Origin: Chitinivibrionales bacterium
GTDB taxonomy: Bacteria > Fibrobacterota > Chitinivibrionia > Chitinivibrionales > WJKA01
Reading direction: 5' to 3'
Assembly (NCBI GenBank): GCA_014728215.1
Contig: WJLZ01000141.1
Coordinates: forward strand, 1-64,000
Length of the DNA stretch: 64,000 nucleotides
Part shown: piece after piece, positions 36,973 through 45,818 of the stretch
How positions within the stretch are numbered: position 1 is the first letter of the stretch
How the letters are laid out: every line of letters begins with the position of its first letter
The notes under the pieces: model-generated
Told to the model about the DNA's origin: nothing
Seen by the model: only the letters and a program-made list of their open reading frames with translations
Database searches by the model: none
Made by a program: the position numbers and the translations under genes

Positions 36973-38832
36973 CTATTTCAAATCATGGGACTCGATTTCA
37001 ACGGTTTCGGGAGTGACGATTTTTTCCAGGTGATGGTCGATGGTATGAAGGAGCAAACGGAAATCGAGGTGTTTGCGGTTCAAAAAAAAGATATCGCTTC
37101 CCTTGAAACTTCTGGTCATTTCGAGGGCAGGAAGCGAATCGATACAGAATATTTTTAATACGTCGGGCTTTGTCTTCTCCTTTTCCTTAACCTCTTCCTC
37201 GTTAAATTCAATATCAAGGGGCACTCCTTTTTCGGACATGAATATCACCACTTTGGCCTTTTGCTGAAGATCGGCCATGTATCGGCTGGTGGTTTTTACC
37301 GTATAGCCGGTGTTTTTAAGCGCAAGTATCAGAGGATGAAAGGCAATATCCTTATTGAGAACAACAATAATTTCTTCCTTTTTTGCCGTATGCTCTGCTT
37401 TAGCGAGAAAAAGGTTTTTCATGGAAAGGTTGAGGAATCTGCAGAGGAGATCAAGATTGCGAATTACCCCTGCAAAGAACCGGTGATCCGGTCCATGGGG
37501 AATATTAAGGTCTCTAAGCATCTCCTCAGGTATCTCATCGATAAATTCATCACAGCTGTGACCGAAATTCATGGCTTTGGCGATAATATTGGCAACAAAA
37601 ACCGATTCCTGGATAATTTTATCATACATTGGTGTCGCTGCAAGGATTCTTTTTGAATTATGATGATTGAGCAGGGTCATTCCGATGGGATCGGGAAAAT
37701 TCCATTTGTTGGCGAGAAAATGGCCGAGTATAGCATGGGTAAAGCCAAGAAGCCGTTCTTCGGTTTCATGGAACGAAGTAACATTATTGGCGGTCTCTTC
37801 CAGAAGGCGGGAGAAAATGGTGTGAAAATTGATGTCCAGGGGGATTTTTCCCAGATCATGGACAAGACCTGCGATAAAGGCCAGTTCGGGACGAGGGTGC
37901 TTGATATCGGCACACAACTTCTCGGCGATCAGTGCGGTACAGAGCGAATGGAACCAGAACTCCTGCCTGCTGAAACCGTACCTTTTATGTACATCGGGAG
38001 TCAGATCTATCAGGGCAAGACAGGCGAGAAGGTTGCGTGTTTCTCTGAATCCGAGCCGGACAACGGCATCGGCAATTTCGCTGATCGGTTTCCCCTGCCG
38101 CCGGGCATAATGGACCGAATTGGCAACCCTGAGTATCGCAGCTGATGCTCCCGCATCGGTAGAGATACATTTCCCCAGCCCATTGCAGCAACTGCCGTCG
38201 GATTCAATGATATCAAGTGCCTTGATCACCGTAAAGGGAAAGACCCACTGCTTGCTGAGAGTCCGCTCTATTTCACCAAGTTTTTGTTCCTTTGATATAT
38301 GTTTGTCGAGTAATTTCTCGGCGATTGCTTTCCGCAACGATTCATCGACATTCCGCATCCCCTCTTCTTGCTGCTGTGTCGTTTGTCCGCTGTGGGAAAC
38401 CATCTGGGAAATCTTTTTCCGAATATCTTTAAAATGAAAGGGATACTCGATAATCCCGGTTGATTTGTAGAGCGCTTCGGCATGCCCCTCCTTACTGTCG
38501 AGAAGAATGTTTTCCAGTTTTGTCCGGAGATTCTGTGGTGTGATGAGCAGAATGGGCGTGTTTTTTGTACGTACCGATTTTTTCAACCGTGGAATGAGAA
38601 GAATATCTCGAGTATGGTCGGGGGTAACATCGATAATAACCAGGTCTGGAAGAAATTGATACGCCTTTATGGTTGCCAGGTAGGAGACATCAGCTTGGAT
38701 CACCTGATAATTGCATTGCATAAGACCAACGGTAAGAATATCCCGAATACGCTCTCTGGGCGAATAGAGCAGAATCAGGGGATCTGTTTTGGTCCCGCCG
38801 GTGATTTTTGTTTCGGTCACTGAAGGATTCAC
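36973..38832 (-). CDS. Receiver-HDOD signalling protein
   Basis: The 619-residue protein opens with a receiver-like domain (about 18-150; LVIIDVTPD with the acceptor-type Asp, and LLITPQN), then a linker. An HDOD domain (about 205-420) follows with FTVIKALDIIESDGSC, AAILRVANSVHYARRQGKPI (split for length) and an intact HD dyad in GLVHDLGK. The last 150 residues (IIVVLNKDIAFHPLILALK, AKVVIFMSEK, then IFCIDSLP) look like a second receiver fold without an obvious acceptor Asp. No membrane segment. It resembles the HDOD protein at 20.4 kb but with input domains. HDOD output partners are unknown. Confidence 0.86.
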   Translation of the reverse strand: MNPSVTETKITGGTKTDPLILLYSPRERIRDILTVGLMQCNYQVIQADVSYLATIKAYQFLPDLVIIDVTPDHTRDILLIPRLKKSVRTKNTPILLITPQNLRTKLENILLDSKEGHAEALYKSTGIIEYPFHFKDIRKKISQMVSHSGQTTQQQEEGMRNVDESLRKAIAEKLLDKHISKEQKLGEIERTLSKQWVFPFTVIKALDIIESDGSCCNGLGKCISTDAGASAAILRVANSVHYARRQGKPISEIADAVVRLGFRETRNLLACLALIDLTPDVHKRYGFSRQEFWFHSLCTALIAEKLCADIKHPRPELAFIAGLVHDLGKIPLDINFHTIFSRLLEETANNVTSFHETEERLLGFTHAILGHFLANKWNFPDPIGMTLLNHHNSKRILAATPMYDKIIQESVFVANIIAKAMNFGHSCDEFIDEIPEEMLRDLNIPHGPDHRFFAGVIRNLDLLCRFLNLSMKNLFLAKAEHTAKKEEIIVVLNKDIAFHPLILALKNTGYTVKTTSRYMADLQQKAKVVIFMSEKGVPLDIEFNEEEVKEKEKTKPDVLKIFCIDSLPALEMTRSFKGSDIFFLNRKHLDFRLLLHTIDHHLEKIVTPETVEIESHDLK

Positions 38833-38893: not shown

Positions 38894-38922
38894 TTGAAAT
38901 ATACCCTGGTGGGTGGTATAAT
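38894..38922 (+). promoter_or_regulatory. Sigma-70-type promoter P1 of the giant secreted protein
   Basis: TTGAAA (38894-38899), a 17-bp spacer and a perfect TATAAT (38917-38922). Transcription would begin near 38929, giving a leader of about 150 bases. A second promoter (P2) lies downstream. Confidence 0.6.
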
Positions 38923-38989: not shown

Positions 38990-39005
38990 TGTGACTTAAA
39001 TCACA
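38990..39005 (+). promoter_or_regulatory. Perfect CRP/FNR-superfamily operator
   Basis: TGTGACTTAAATCACA is an exact TGTGA-N6-TCACA palindrome, the best possible match to the core CRP consensus. The flanking C and G extend the symmetry to 18 bp. Its centre (38997.5) is 41.5 bp upstream of the start expected from the P2 TATAAT box, which is the defining position of class II CRP-activated promoters. Confidence 0.7.
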
Positions 39006-39026
39006 GCACAACTCACCGGATCGGGA

Positions 39027-39032
39027 TATAAT
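39027..39032 (+). promoter_or_regulatory. -10 element of promoter P2 of the giant gene
   Basis: TATAAT at 39027-39032, separated from the CRP-type operator by 21 bp, with no good -35 hexamer of its own, as expected for activator-dependent promoters. Start expected near 39039, about 40 bp before the ATG. A small GAGAGG/CCTCTT hairpin follows in the leader. Confidence 0.6.
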
Positions 39033-39077
39033 TGAGAGGATGTATTAACACCTCTTTCATTTTCAGGAGAACAAATA

Positions 39078-42000
39078 ATGGCTGACCAGAAAAACAGCGG
39101 ATACACCAGGCTCCTTATTGCAGCATTCTTTCTTGCAGGAGCACTTTCGACCTTTGCGCAGGATTCAACCTATACCATTACCGACTCGTGCAACAAAGCC
39201 TATGCACGCGTGGCGGTAAAAGATTCGACCGGTGCTCCTGAGAGTGAAATACAAGCCGTGGTCTTTGTACGCCGGGAATCGGGGAGGAAAATCGAAGCAT
39301 TCAGGGAAAGCGAAAATATCTTTTCGATCCCGGAGCTTCCTTGCGGCACCTACGACATTTATTTGCCGGCATCTAAATATCCCGCGCAATTTTACAATCC
39401 CGCACAAAACACATCCCAACCGGAATACGGCGTCTGGATCGGCGATACGGATACTCTTTATCTTGATATTTACATGACCATGGCAATCTCTTTTGACGGC
39501 AGTATTTCGGGATATATCCAGGACAGCACCATGCTGCCTGCATCGGGCACGGCAGTTGAACTCTATTCGCCTTCAGATCTAACCGCCCCGCAGTTTACGT
39601 CAACGACCGATTCCTTGGGATGGTTTACTTTTGCCCGGCTTCCGGAGCCATCCTATTACCTGAAAATACCGGCAACAGGCGGCTATCCCGACCAATGGTT
39701 CACCCACAACGGCAATACCGGTTCGCCATCATCGACTATATCATCATCCACCTATGGGGAAATCTATGTAGAACTCGCACCGAACCCGCCAATGGCAACA
39801 TCGGTAATCTACTTTGTCATGCGTGATGAAAACGGATCACCCTATTATGGTACCGAACATATCGAATTGCACAACAATTTCAAGGGAATTTATTACGGTA
39901 CCGAAAAACTTTACAACAAAGATACACTCGAAGCCCGTAACCTTCTTCCTGGTAACTATGAAGTGGCAATCTATTCTTCCTATCCGACTCAGTTCTGGCA
40001 TGCAAATGCTAACACATCCCGCCCCGATACTTCTTTGCCGGTGGCTGAGAGTGATACTATGGTTATTCCCGTTACCATGAATCCCAATCCTCAACATATG
40101 GTCACCATTATGGGTTCCCTGTTCGACAGTCTGTCGGGCCCGGCCTCTTCAATGACCCTGAGTCTCTGCGATGTTAAAGATCCGAGCCGGACAATCTACA
40201 CGGCGTTAAGTGATCGGGAGGGAAATTATGTATTTCCTGATATCAACGAAACAGAATACTACCTGAAAATTGAAGGCGCCGGGTATCCCACCCAGTGGTG
40301 GTGCCAAAATTATTCATCTCCATCAACCGCTCCCTTTTGTCCATTCTGGGTGCACGACAGCATGCATAATTATATTTATCTAACCCAGGCCCCGGTTGCG
40401 GCGAATGGATATCTGAGCTGTGTTCTTACCGATGAAAAGGGTATCGCGGTCTCAAATGTCAATAACATTCAACTGAGGTCCACCGATAATTCGGGCCTGT
40501 ATAAGGACGGCGCCTCTGTTTCGGAGGGAAAATATGAATTCGCCAACCTCCCCCAGGGTGAATATCAGATAGAAATCTGCGCCGACTATTATCCCTGCCA
40601 GTATTATGATCCAAAGGGCAACACCTCGGAACCCGACTATTTTTTCAATCTTTCGGGAACCGATTCGATGACACTTGAAATCGTTATAACTCCGGCCCCG
40701 ATTTTCAAAGGGGCTATCAAAGGACATCTGGAATCGGATCCAAATGATGGATCCATTATCAGCGGGGCGACAATTTCACTCTATTCCCCTGCCGATACAA
40801 CACAACCAGCCTTCACTTCTTCTACCGATTCTACAGGAAGATTTGTATTTGACAACTTACCTGAGCGTGAATATTTTATCAAAGTATCCCCTTACGGGCA
40901 GTATCCCGAACAATGGCTGGGCTATAATAATTCCAGTACCCAAGAGGCTGTTACTCCTGTATACGCAGATCCTTACACGGATTCATGGTACACGCTTTCC
41001 CTGAATCCATCGGTGGGCCCCATGCTCACGGTGACGGTTAAGGATTCTGCGGGAGAACAATTGTATGCTCATGATGTTTTTCTCTATGAGGAGGGAACCG
41101 GCCAGACTTATCATGGTATGCAATCGTATAGTAAATCTACCGGCGAAAGCAACATGACATTCTTTTTTGAGGATATTCCTCAAGGCACCTACGCCTTGCA
41201 TGTGGCGTCCGACCGGTATCCTCCTCAATTTTACAACCCATCGGGCAACACTCCTGAACCAAGTTACGTTTTCCCCGTGAGTCCGGACTCCGCTGTGGTT
41301 ATCGAAATGTATTTGACCTACGATAAAACGCAGCCGATAGCCCCTTCTTACGGTGGTGCAATCAGCGGCATGGTAACTGATAAATCGACCGGCACAGGTA
41401 TTCCTTATGCGTATGTGGGCGTTGTTTACGGTGAAAAGGATATGGATTTCAATCCGAGCGAGTATGGGGCGATGTTTTCGGCAAAAACCGACAGCACCGG
41501 ATCGTACACGATCGGGGGAATTGAGGCCGGCTCTTATTTTGTCTATGCCCTTACTCCTGGGAAAAATTATGTGCCCCAGTTTTATCAGGCTGTTGATAAT
41601 TCCCGCAATGCACGGATTCTCACTATTGTCGACTCCAATAAAATCGAGAACATAGATTTCATTCTGCGGCAGGGCGCTATTCTGGCCGGTCGTGTTTCGA
41701 TGAAAGACGGGACACCGGCTGCTGAAGCAGGAGTCAGTCTGCACGGTCATGATATCAATATCTGGCGCAATACCGTTACCGATTCGCAGGGACGATATGT
41801 CTTCAGAGGACTGCTTTCAGGCACCTATTCACTCAATGCTCGGGGCAATGGCTATTTCCCGTCAACCGATACCATTTTTCCCGAGTATACACTCACCGAA
41901 GGCGACAGTATCGAAGCAGGCGGTCTCATGGTGGAAGCAGGTGGAATTCTTAGGGGTATGGTGACTATGCAGACGACCTCAAACGATCCTTCAGGGTACG

Positions 42001-45000
42001 GCATGCCTTTCCGCATTTACCTTTACCCGGATTCATCACAGGACGATGGAAAGATGCTATGGCCCCGCGAAATGCTTCATGCCCGCACGGAATCCGGCGG
42101 CTATTATAATGCCGATATGACCCGTCCGGGTGACTGGCGTATGGTTTTTGTTCCCTATCAATCGCATACAATCACCGAAACGACCACTACCTCGAACACA
42201 AATTTTATCCAAGGCAACGGATGGTCCCTCGCACAGACTGCGACCGGCCTATCGCAATCGCCGCTGTTTACCGTATCTTCACGGGACACCACAATGATAA
42301 ATGTTGCATTTCGAAAGGGATATTCGGTTTTCGGCTCTGTTTCTACCGAAGATGGCGCTTATGTGAGCACCCGCGATTTAAATCAGCAGATCGGTTTTCA
42401 CTGCAATGTTTTTGTCAAGGAAAACGATTCGTATTATCTGATTTCCGAGGGGCACATGCGGTCCGACGGCAAGTTTGAAATTCCGGGCCTTATCGACGGC
42501 AAAGATTATTATATCAGCGCGGGGGCGGACGGTTATCCACATCAGTTCTGGTCTCCCACCGGCGCCAACAACACCGAGCCAAAGGAGCCATACCACTTTT
42601 CGACTACCAGTTTCATTCCCCTGAAAATCGTACTCGAATCCAATCCCGAAGGGTATTATCCTCACCACTACGAGCCGGTATCAATCCACTCCTTTGTTGA
42701 TTCGCTGAATCAGTTCTGGGTTGAGATGCAAATCGACCGGAGTCTCGACCTGGATTCGCTCACCCTTTTCAGCACCGATGAATCGGGCGTGGTTTCAAAA
42801 GTATACTCAACGGTTCTCGACAGCTCACGCTCTAAATTCAAATGGCGGGAGACACGCAACAGTTATTCGGTCCAGTACCGGTATATTGCACTGGCATACG
42901 GACCGGAAGCGTCATACAGGTCTTCGATTTTATACTATGATCTGCAAAACAGCCGGACAGTGCCCGACGATTCATTGTGGCTCGATGTATCAGGCCGCCC
43001 GTTTGGTATCCAAATAACCTGGGGCGCCGGAAAATCCTATGAACCTCTTGAGACGGATACTATCCTCATTTACCGGCGCCCCGCAGGCGCCACCAACTGG
43101 AACGAACTCCATCGCCGGGTAGCCTGGGACCAGTGGCTTGATGATCACGAGTGGGATGACCGCAATGATTCGGGCGTAACCTATCAGTATAAGGCGGGAC
43201 TCCTTTACAAGGGTACAATTGCCAGATGGTCGCCGGTTATTTCTTTTACCATAAGCGACCAGTTTATAGACCAACTTGCCCGGGGTGAGGAGCTTTTGGT
43301 GGGTCCGAACAGGCGCTACACCACAATTCAGGAAGCGATCAATGCAGCTGAAGATTATGACCGGATTATCGTAGAACAGGGTGAATACATCGAAAACCTC
43401 TCTATCGGTACCAAAAAGATCGAACTCAACGGCATGTGGAACGACAACAAGCCACCCATAATCAATGGAAACGGCGGCACCGGCATTTCAATCGACTTTA
43501 CCGCCGGTTCGGGGCAAGACTGGTATGAACGGTGTCGAATCTTCGGATTCAAATTCAAAAACTGTGCAGTTGCTGTCAAGACAGGAAGCGAAGTTGAGAT
43601 CTCTCAATGTTTGTTTGCAGGCGGTTCAGGTGTTGTTGTCGATATCGACAGTGCGGCTATGACGGCGGCAGTAAAAAGCGACCCCTTTGCTCCTGCTGAG
43701 ATCCATGCCAACCTGTGGGCCTGTACTTTCATCGGGAAATCCACCACCGACAAGGCGATTACCCTTACGGCGAAAGGTCCGGCGGTTTCGAATGATTCAC
43801 TCCCTTCCGATCAATTCATGGGGCCGATTTCGACTGTCCCGCCCATGATCATGCGGTCCAATGCCCATATCGGCAATTCCATTTTCAGCGGCTATGGACC
43901 ATCAACACCTTTTCAACTGCACCAGGCAACATTCCTTCATATGCATAATGCCGATTTCTGGCCTTCGAACAGTAAGCTGGCTGTTGAAAATATCGAACTC
44001 TCGGGCACGATTGTTTCTGTAGATCCACAATTTATTGATACGACCTTTTATCTGCTCTCCGCAACATCACCACTCAAGAGCAGCGCGTCCAATGGAGAAC
44101 CGATGGGTTATGATTCATGGCATCATGAAGGACCGCCTGCCTATTATAACGATGCTCCGGGACCTGTTGAAAATTTCACGGCCGGTATGGCAAGTCTCGA
44201 TGCAGTAGCACTTACCTGGTCCCCGCCGGCAGGATCGACCTCGATTGCATTCTATGCAGTATACCGGGTGGACGGCAATCCCGATCTCTGGTATGTTAGA
44301 AATGATTCGGAATGGGACATGAAACAGGGGATGGATCAGGAACCCGACCCGATCGGGACAACAACCAAAACATCGTTTATTGACTCTACGGTAACGCCGG
44401 GCGCCAAATATATCTATGCGGTTGCGGCTATCGATGCGGATTCGAACCACGGCGAGATCCGTCTCCCCTATCCGCCTCCCCTGGAGAATTATATCGTGGA
44501 AGTTGGTTATGGCGCCTGTAGTAAAATTCAATCGATACCCCTGAAAGGCAAGCAGTGGCACATGATCGGCCCTTGGGGACTGGGTTCAATTACTCCGCCG
44601 GTATCGGAGAATCGGCATATTTACCGGTGGGACGACACTAAAACTCCGGATAAGCTTTACGATCAGTATATTTCATCATCCACAATGAAAAGCGGCAAAG
44701 GTTACTGGTTTTTCAGCGAGACCGATACGACGCTCAATATTACCAAAGCGTTTTACGACAGTCTGGCGCAGCAACGTGGCGGCGTTCAGATCGAGTTGAA
44801 ACATGGAGAAAGCGGCTGGAACCAGATCAGTTCACCCTATCCCTTTCCTGTGGCTCCCGACTGGCTTCAATCGTTCCAGCCCAATGCCTGGGTCGGCGGG
44901 ACTGAAGGATACACCGGTGATGTGCGGTATCTCAAGCCCTGGCAGGCGGTGTGGGTCTATACTCCCCGTGACACGGTGCTGACTATCGAGGGAAAAGCAT

Positions 45001-45818
45001 ATATTCCAACGATGCAGCCCCTTGCTAAAACCAAAAAACAGACCTTCTGGGAAGTACAGGTTTCACTCGCCGGACCGTCAACAAAGGACCAGAACAATTA
45101 CCTGGGAGTTCTCCCGCCGCACCTTGCAAAATCCACAACCGCCCATCGCATGGAACCACCGCCGGCATTCGGGTACCCGAATGTTTACTTTGTAAAATGT
45201 GGTGATGCAGCTCAGGCAGCGCTCAATCCTGAAGAACGGCTGGCGCGGCACTATAAAGCTTCTGCCGAAATCCCCAACGGTAAACTCGAATGGATGGTCG
45301 GCATGTCACCGTCAGACAAAGAAACCAGCCTCAAGTTCGATGGCCTTACACAGGTCCCCGACCCCGTACTGGTATTCTGGGTCACCAATGATACGGCAAT
45401 CAATCTGCGGGAAACCGACGAAATAACCATGCCGCCCCACGATAATTCACGCTACGGTTATGTGGTGGCGACGGCAAATCCACTGGATATCGCACTTTAC
45501 ACCGGAAAGTTCCATCTTCGGAAAAATTTCCCCAATCCTTTCGGAAATATCACTACCCTCGAGTACGTGGTTCCCTATGCCTGGAATAATAACGGTTCCA
45601 AAGCGGCCGGGGAATTCCGTGACCTCTCGCTGAAAGTCTATGATATCAAAGGACGGTGTGTCGCCACCCTGACCGAGGGCAAGGTGAAAGTCGGTATTCA
45701 CCGGACAGTCTGGAACGGCACAAGCAGTTTCGGCAAGAACGTCGCTACCGGTTTTTATATCGGACGGCTTATGACAAAGGGATTTCATAAGACCATTAAG
45801 ATGATGAAGGTTAAATAG
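39078..45818 (+). CDS. Giant secreted multidomain repeat protein with C-terminal sorting-like tail
   Basis: The 2246-residue protein has a signal peptide (about 1-28, ending LSTFAQ). Residues about 38-940 are beta-sandwich units of about 100 residues. Seven carry a YPxQ[FWY] motif spaced 99-105 residues apart, followed by a more diverged eighth (YVPQFY). They alternate between two types and resemble carboxypeptidase-regulatory/SpaA-like folds. Two further such units and an unassigned region run to about 1400. A right-handed beta-helix follows (about 1405-1685, YTTIQEAINAAEDYDRIIVE). Then comes a fibronectin-III-like domain (about 1690-1795, VALTWSPPAGST). Two unassigned beta domains follow. 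The last 105 residues (KNFPNPFGNITTLEYVVP, LKVYDIKGR, ATGFYIGRL) match a FlgD-like/type IX sorting tail. Function is probably adhesion or polysaccharide binding; no catalytic motif is certain. A strong AGGAGA site precedes the ATG. Confidence 0.9.
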   Translation: MADQKNSGYTRLLIAAFFLAGALSTFAQDSTYTITDSCNKAYARVAVKDSTGAPESEIQAVVFVRRESGRKIEAFRESENIFSIPELPCGTYDIYLPASKYPAQFYNPAQNTSQPEYGVWIGDTDTLYLDIYMTMAISFDGSISGYIQDSTMLPASGTAVELYSPSDLTAPQFTSTTDSLGWFTFARLPEPSYYLKIPATGGYPDQWFTHNGNTGSPSSTISSSTYGEIYVELAPNPPMATSVIYFVMRDENGSPYYGTEHIELHNNFKGIYYGTEKLYNKDTLEARNLLPGNYEVAIYSSYPTQFWHANANTSRPDTSLPVAESDTMVIPVTMNPNPQHMVTIMGSLFDSLSGPASSMTLSLCDVKDPSRTIYTALSDREGNYVFPDINETEYYLKIEGAGYPTQWWCQNYSSPSTAPFCPFWVHDSMHNYIYLTQAPVAANGYLSCVLTDEKGIAVSNVNNIQLRSTDNSGLYKDGASVSEGKYEFANLPQGEYQIEICADYYPCQYYDPKGNTSEPDYFFNLSGTDSMTLEIVITPAPIFKGAIKGHLESDPNDGSIISGATISLYSPADTTQPAFTSSTDSTGRFVFDNLPEREYFIKVSPYGQYPEQWLGYNNSSTQEAVTPVYADPYTDSWYTLSLNPSVGPMLTVTVKDSAGEQLYAHDVFLYEEGTGQTYHGMQSYSKSTGESNMTFFFEDIPQGTYALHVASDRYPPQFYNPSGNTPEPSYVFPVSPDSAVVIEMYLTYDKTQPIAPSYGGAISGMVTDKSTGTGIPYAYVGVVYGEKDMDFNPSEYGAMFSAKTDSTGSYTIGGIEAGSYFVYALTPGKNYVPQFYQAVDNSRNARILTIVDSNKIENIDFILRQGAILAGRVSMKDGTPAAEAGVSLHGHDINIWRNTVTDSQGRYVFRGLLSGTYSLNARGNGYFPSTDTIFPEYTLTEGDSIEAGGLMVEAGGILRGMVTMQTTSNDPSGYGMPFRIYLYPDSSQDDGKMLWPREMLHARTESGGYYNADMTRPGDWRMVFVPYQSHTITETTTTSNTNFIQGNGWSLAQTATGLSQSPLFTVSSRDTTMINVAFRKGYSVFGSVSTEDGAYVSTRDLNQQIGFHCNVFVKENDSYYLISEGHMRSDGKFEIPGLIDGKDYYISAGADGYPHQFWSPTGANNTEPKEPYHFSTTSFIPLKIVLESNPEGYYPHHYEPVSIHSFVDSLNQFWVEMQIDRSLDLDSLTLFSTDESGVVSKVYSTVLDSSRSKFKWRETRNSYSVQYRYIALAYGPEASYRSSILYYDLQNSRTVPDDSLWLDVSGRPFGIQITWGAGKSYEPLETDTILIYRRPAGATNWNELHRRVAWDQWLDDHEWDDRNDSGVTYQYKAGLLYKGTIARWSPVISFTISDQFIDQLARGEELLVGPNRRYTTIQEAINAAEDYDRIIVEQGEYIENLSIGTKKIELNGMWNDNKPPIINGNGGTGISIDFTAGSGQDWYERCRIFGFKFKNCAVAVKTGSEVEISQCLFAGGSGVVVDIDSAAMTAAVKSDPFAPAEIHANLWACTFIGKSTTDKAITLTAKGPAVSNDSLPSDQFMGPISTVPPMIMRSNAHIGNSIFSGYGPSTPFQLHQATFLHMHNADFWPSNSKLAVENIELSGTIVSVDPQFIDTTFYLLSATSPLKSSASNGEPMGYDSWHHEGPPAYYNDAPGPVENFTAGMASLDAVALTWSPPAGSTSIAFYAVYRVDGNPDLWYVRNDSEWDMKQGMDQEPDPIGTTTKTSFIDSTVTPGAKYIYAVAAIDADSNHGEIRLPYPPPLENYIVEVGYGACSKIQSIPLKGKQWHMIGPWGLGSITPPVSENRHIYRWDDTKTPDKLYDQYISSSTMKSGKGYWFFSETDTTLNITKAFYDSLAQQRGGVQIELKHGESGWNQISSPYPFPVAPDWLQSFQPNAWVGGTEGYTGDVRYLKPWQAVWVYTPRDTVLTIEGKAYIPTMQPLAKTKKQTFWEVQVSLAGPSTKDQNNYLGVLPPHLAKSTTAHRMEPPPAFGYPNVYFVKCGDAAQAALNPEERLARHYKASAEIPNGKLEWMVGMSPSDKETSLKFDGLTQVPDPVLVFWVTNDTAINLRETDEITMPPHDNSRYGYVVATANPLDIALYTGKFHLRKNFPNPFGNITTLEYVVPYAWNNNGSKAAGEFRDLSLKVYDIKGRCVATLTEGKVKVGIHRTVWNGTSSFGKNVATGFYIGRLMTKGFHKTIKMMKVK
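39190..41680 (+). repeat. Four alternating A/B pairs of about 100-residue repeats
   Basis: The YPxQ motif falls near residues 100, 202, 301, 402, 504, 609, 713 and 830. Odd units (A) have Q followed by F or Y and then an N-T-x-x-P step (for example QFYNPAQNTSQPEY, QYYDPKGNTSEPDY). Even units 2, 4 and 6 (B) begin with an I-x-G strand (SISGY, TIMGS, AIKGH), have a T-D-S-x-G-x-F turn and read QW. The eighth unit keeps the B start (AISGM) but is longer and reads QFY. The higher period is therefore about 205 residues, or about 610 bp. Confidence 0.75.

What the first reader, a model, noticed from the sequence alone, without database searches (positions are those of the whole stretch)
38990..39039. 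Textbook class II CRP-dependent promoter in front of a 2246-residue secreted protein
Seen: TGTGACTTAAATCACA is a perfect TGTGA-N6-TCACA palindrome. Exactly 21 bp after it lies TATAAT (39027-39032) with no -35 of its own. Counting 7 bp from the -10 to the start gives an operator centre at -41.5, the position defining class II CRP sites in enteric bacteria. Known: this geometry supports activation through contact with the alpha and sigma subunits. Inference: a CRP/FNR-family regulator controls this surface protein, probably in answer to carbon source or a cyclic nucleotide. A second, constitutive-looking promoter lies 100 bp upstream.
Basis: partly seen in the sequence, partly recalled or inferred. 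Interest (0 to 1): 0.78.

Follow-up and report, generated by a model that had tools for sequence, protein, structure and literature searches.

The report
CRP-activated promoter, part of wide regulon
The finding is a genuine CRP-type (cyclic-AMP receptor) activated promoter in front of a giant secreted protein in an uncultured Fibrobacterota-like bacterium, and the same switch design recurs across related families, often in front of type VI secretion parts and surface proteins.

Summary
It is not chance. Eight homologous genes (seven other genera, five families) carry a CRP-like site with a -10 at 21 bp (seven) or 22 bp (one). In five genomes, perfect TGTGA-N6-TCACA sites have a -10-like hexamer at 21 bp 33 times, against about 3 at other spacings. 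The genome encodes a CRP homologue (helix SRETVSR; E. coli SRETVGR) and a class III cyclase. Genomes with this CRP average 11 such promoters; those without average 0.5. The upstream 'constitutive' promoter is conserved too. Beyond the finding, the predicted regulon is rich in T6SS Hcp, VgrG and PAAR genes and lipoprotein/surface proteins; hcp carries the site in 12 of 16 CRP-bearing genomes and 0 of 13 lacking CRP. The promoter is a new member of a known kind; the T6SS/surface regulon in this lineage was not found in the papers searched. All evidence is comparative; there are no transcript or binding data.

The parts
38990..39005 (+). CRP operator TGTGACTTAAATCACA, centre at about -41.5
   Evidence: read directly; conserved in eight homologues
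39027..39032 (+). -10 element TATAAT of the CRP-dependent promoter P2; predicted start about 39039
   Evidence: read directly; -10-like hexamer at 21-22 bp in all eight homologues and as a genome-wide peak
38894..38922 (+). upstream promoter P1, TTGAAA-N17-TATAAT with extended -10 TG; no CRP site of its own seen
   Evidence: + strand promoter upstream of the operator in all nine genes, score 94 vs 72.5 +/- 2.0 for shuffles
39065..39069 (+). ribosome-binding site AGGAG
   Evidence: read directly
39078..45818 (+). 2246-aa secreted protein with CarboxypepD_reg repeats and a C-terminal FlgD_ig-like domain; the controlled gene
   Evidence: homologues in several families
36973..38832 (-). divergent HDOD-domain gene; bounds the intergenic region, no sign of control by this operator
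   Evidence: no -10-like hexamer at 21-22 bp on the reverse arm

Best explanation
A CRP-activated promoter of class II geometry. A CRP dimer (P0002, contig C222) loaded with a cyclic nucleotide, most likely cAMP, binds 38990-39005 centred at -41.5, stands in for the missing -35, contacts RNA polymerase and drives transcription from about 39039 into the 2246-aa secreted protein. A CRP-independent-looking promoter 100 bp upstream gives basal expression. The promoter belongs to a CRP regulon found across the order whose promoters share this spacing and whose targets include T6SS tube/tip genes and large exported proteins. Shown: architecture, conservation, spacing peak, regulator gene, co-occurrence of regulator and sites. 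Inferred: binding, activation, start site, ligand and signal.
For: Architecture; eight homologues with a site and a -10 at 21 bp (7) or 22 bp (1); TANNNT at 21 bp in 33 of 120 arms vs 3.3 per other position; 40 of 68 distinct sites with a -10 at 21-22 bp vs 6.8 for other spacing pairs; CRP with SRETVSR helix and conserved E72/R82/S83 equivalents; class III cyclase; 11.2 vs 0.48 class II sites in genomes with and without the CRP; hcp sites 12/16 vs 0/13.
Against: No transcript, binding or mutant data. E. coli T127 is A140 here, so the ligand could differ. Only about 30% identity to E. coli CRP; activating-region residues are only partly conserved. Genomes are related, so co-occurrence p-values overstate independence.
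Confidence: 0.88

Rival explanations
1. The operator is used for repression: the CRP-family protein bound there blocks readthrough from the upstream promoter P1, and the TATAAT at 21 bp is not used.
For: P1 is a strong, conserved consensus-like promoter upstream of the operator, so bound protein would lie in its path.
Against: A -10 at exactly 21-22 bp is conserved in all nine genes and peaks genome-wide; a roadblock needs no such spacing.
Confidence: 0.06
2. Another CRP/FNR-family protein of the genome, not P0002, uses these sites (for example the proteins on C75 or C164).
For: The genome has 15 cNMP-binding-domain hits, several with possible HTH domains.
Against: Among the proteins read, only P0002 has the RETVSR helix (C75 has TPETLSR), and the sites vanish in genomes lacking its orthologue.
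Confidence: 0.05
3. Chance palindrome near a chance TATAAT.
For: Three reversed-control matches occur in the genome; the intergenic region is AT-rich.
Against: Conservation upstream of homologues in five families and the spacing peak.
Confidence: 0.01

Closest known systems
Class II CRP(CAP)-dependent promoters of Escherichia coli (gal type; PMC7192510)
   Same: TGTGA-N6-TCACA operator, 21 bp to the -10, centre -41.5, no good -35; a second promoter nearby as in gal
   Different: different phylum; CRP about 30% identical to E. coli CRP; transcription start, ligand and polymerase contacts untested; target is a giant secreted protein
cAMP-CRP control of hcp in Vibrio cholerae (PMC2726435)
   Same: CRP needed for expression of the T6SS tube protein Hcp
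   Different: there expression also requires RpoN and quorum sensing; here hcp has a sigma-70-like class II promoter, predicted from sequence only
Predicted CRP regulons of cyanobacteria (PMC2633013)
   Same: computational regulon with CRP-type sites outside Proteobacteria
   Different: different phylum; target genes not compared in detail here

Membership tests
Class II CRP-dependent promoter | TGTGA-N6-TCACA-type operator | tested here: met
   perfect at 38990-39005
Class II CRP-dependent promoter | operator centre near -41.5, i.e. 21 bp to the -10, replacing the -35 | tested here: met
   21 bp to TATAAT, -35 region CAGCAC; start itself not mapped
Class II CRP-dependent promoter | conservation of site and spacing | tested here: met
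   eight of eight readable homologues; spacing peak at 21 bp
Class II CRP-dependent promoter | transcription depends on CRP and its ligand | not testable with these tools
   needs reporter, binding or transcript data
CRP (P0002) | cNMP-binding domain plus Crp-type HTH | tested here: met
   PF00027 2e-25, PF13545 1.2e-19
CRP (P0002) | R-E-x-x-x-R recognition helix for TGTGA | tested here: met
   SRETVSR; R-E-T-V-[ST]-R in 15 orthologous genes read
CRP (P0002) | cAMP-pocket residues E72, R82, S83, T127, S128 | tested here: inconclusive
   first three conserved; T127 is A140 and S128 is N141
E. coli-type CRP equivalog (NCBIfam NF008732) | curated score cut-off of 266 bits | tested here: not met
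   best equivalog hit but only 116.8 bits: a CRP-like homologue, not the curated equivalog
FNR | TTGAT-N4-ATCAA site | tested here: not met
   site is TGTGA-type; P0002 scores 59 bits against the Fnr model, cut-off 228

The most novel reading that the evidence does not exclude
In this uncultured order CRP is largely a regulator of outward-facing functions: an order-wide regulon of class II promoters that drives T6SS tube and tip genes (hcp, vgrG, PAAR), large lipoproteins and giant secreted proteins, rather than mainly sugar metabolism.
Probability: 0.45. Interest if true: 0.62.

Novelty: new member of a known kind. Interest (0 to 1): 0.5.

Why it matters
It indicates from sequence that the E. 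coli class II CRP design, down to the 21-bp spacing, is in use across an uncultured lineage of another phylum, and it hands over a concrete predicted regulon. Linking T6SS tube/tip genes and giant surface proteins to a cyclic-nucleotide regulator gives a testable proposal for when these bacteria deploy them, in a group for which the paper searches found no work on CRP.

Tried and rejected
First genome-contig scan with the 2246-aa protein found no relatives; the allowed repeat used P0002. Autoregulation of crp: no site with up to 2 mismatches within 350 bp upstream of any of 16 crp matches. Divergent control of the HDOD gene by the same operator: no -10-like hexamer at 21-22 bp on the reverse arm. 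Known ncRNAs behind sites with no clear downstream ORF: Rfam found only a cobalamin riboswitch on the opposite strand of L313. Looser scans (13 matches, below chance, 83 matches vs 41 control) are too noisy to list regulon members. Papers on CRP in Fibrobacter or Fibrobacterota: nothing on topic in the held library. A first attempt to hand in this report was malformed and was not accepted.

Full report
WHAT WAS CLAIMED AND CHECKED. The finding describes a perfect TGTGA-N6-TCACA operator at 38990-39005, TATAAT 21 bp downstream, no -35, a 2246-residue secreted protein, and a second promoter 100 bp upstream. All of this is in the sequence. The -35 position of the downstream promoter reads CAGCAC, so it should be weak without an activator. 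The operator is the only perfect one in the window. The genome (5.0 Mb, 229 contigs; the window is on contig C141) has 14 perfect sites against 3 for the reversed control pattern.

THE REGULATOR EXISTS. The genome has 15 cNMP-binding-domain hits; P0002 (227 aa, contig C222) also has the best Crp-type HTH. By sequence its solved relatives include CRP/FNR-family regulators and E. coli CAP. Of 16 crp matches examined in the order, 15 gave a readable helix, R-E-T-V-[ST]-R in all (in the sixteenth the script missed it, its locus being cut by a contig end). Residues equivalent to E. coli E72, R82 and S83 are conserved; T127 is A140 and S128 is N141. One class III cyclase gene is present. A cyclic nucleotide, probably cAMP, is the likely ligand, but this is inference.

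WHERE IT COMES FROM. The nearest named relative of P0002 is from a Fibrobacteres MAG (fen_1185, 68% identity); those from other named phyla are at 45%, or 50% over a shorter stretch.

CONSERVATION OF THE PROMOTER. Homologues of the 2246-aa protein occur in several families of the order. The upstream region was readable for eight (G002, G003, G004, G007, G012, G026, G027, G031). All eight have a CRP-like site (three perfect, five with one mismatch) and a -10-like hexamer 21 bp downstream in seven and 22 bp in one. Two more (G001, G009) are cut by contig ends. G028 has only a partial homologue; it has no site there and no CRP orthologue. The printed flanks of the nine genes show little other similarity except between the two of one genus, so site and spacing look selected.

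UNBIASED SPACING TEST. Downstream arms of perfect sites were collected from five genomes (G000, G002, G003, G007, G027) without requiring a -10. Among 120 arms TANNNT occurs 33 times at 21 bp, 11 times at 22 bp and 3.3 times per position elsewhere. Per distinct site, 40 of 68 have such a hexamer at 21-22 bp on at least one side, against a mean of 6.8 for other pairs of spacings. A 21-bp gap corresponds to an operator centre at -41.5, the class II position (PMC7192510).

CO-OCCURRENCE. In 18 genomes of the order with a P0002 orthologue the class II pattern (spacing 20-23 bp, overlapping matches counted) occurs 11.2 times on average; in 21 genomes without one, 0.48 times (Mann-Whitney p 3e-7). 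G001 (77% complete) and G040 (outside the order) were left out; three genomes with a 35-36% identical homologue were counted as lacking the orthologue. The genomes are related, so the p-value overstates independence.

WHAT THE REGULON CONTROLS. A hundred stretches with class II-type sites were fetched from relatives, the window genome's own sites added, and the likely first gene taken automatically. Of 97 such genes of at least 100 aa there are 10 Hcp-like, 6 VgrG, 3 PAAR, 27 lipoprotein-like, 17 with another signal-like N-terminus, 5 of an LPP20-like exported family, 6 of an uncharacterised CxxCxxxPCxxL family and 23 others (family hits). By a crude hydrophobicity rule 48 of 97 have a signal-like N-terminus against 14 of 51 window ORFs. 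Gene picking was automatic and paralogues inflate the counts. In the window's own genome such sites precede genes for Hcp (L014), VgrG (L002), PAAR (L004), an OmpA/peptidoglycan-binding protein (L011) and an exported protein (L006), besides the window's gene.

REVERSE TEST ON HCP. Starting from hcp genes rather than sites: in CRP-bearing genomes 12 of 16 canonical hcp genes have the site (11 perfect with a -10 at 21-22 bp; one with a single mismatch and an unclear -10); in CRP-lacking genomes 0 of 13 (Fisher p 6e-5). G001, in which no P0002 orthologue was found, has a perfect site before hcp and was left out as an incomplete genome. The contrast argues that the sites belong to this CRP.

THE UPSTREAM PROMOTER. 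A + strand sigma-70-type promoter (9 to 11 of 12 consensus matches) lies upstream of the operator in the window and all eight homologues; the summed best score is 94 against 72.5 +/- 2.0 for shuffled sequence, with 0 of 300 shuffles reaching it. A tandem arrangement, basal P1 plus CRP-activated P2, is therefore likely.

MECHANISM. Ligand-bound CRP binds at -41.5, substitutes for the missing -35, contacts polymerase and activates P2. Shown: architecture, conservation, spacing, regulator gene, co-occurrence. Inferred: binding, activation, start site, ligand, signal. In Vibrio cholerae CRP and cya are needed for Hcp (PMC2726435), a functional parallel in another phylum.

NOVELTY. The promoter is a textbook class II design, a new member of a known kind. 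An order-wide CRP regulon with T6SS tube/tip and surface genes was not found in the held library, which is incomplete. The Chitinispirillum genome paper notes a T6SS in the phylum but does not mention CRP (PMC4814513).

LIMITS. No expression data; draft genomes; class I spacings were not tested because the arms read were 38 bp long; gene picking was automatic.

Noticed in passing
L014 (G000:C203), L002 (G000:C24), L004 (G000:C37): T6SS hcp, vgrG and PAAR genes of the window's genome each sit behind a class II-type CRP site; the same holds for many such genes in relatives.
   Followed up: yes
L374 (G000:C53:16098-16140, + strand): One-mismatch CRP site with TATAAT at 21 bp but no ORF of 60 aa or more on that strand for 1.5 kb downstream; no Rfam match. 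Possibly an unannotated RNA.
   Followed up: partly
L009 (G000:C119:19129-19238): Two near-identical sites about 94 bp apart (TGTGAAATATATCACA and TGTGAAATATATCACG), without a -10 at 21-22 bp beside the first; perhaps another regulator or class I use.
   Followed up: no
G003:C179:9739-10547: A cluster of TGTGAAA-N2-TTTCACA-like palindromes without a -10 at 21 bp, unlike the other sites; perhaps sites of a different regulator.
   Followed up: no
L258, L260, L287, L298, L301, L315 (and L003 in the window's genome): Uncharacterised protein family with an N-terminal CxxCxxxPCxxL motif repeatedly behind class II-type sites; L315 also has OmpA and peptidoglycan-binding domains; two others have no Pfam hit.
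   Followed up: partly
L221, L230 (G004:C8 and C31): Single CRP sites with a -10 at 21 bp on both sides, so one operator may serve two divergent genes.
   Followed up: no
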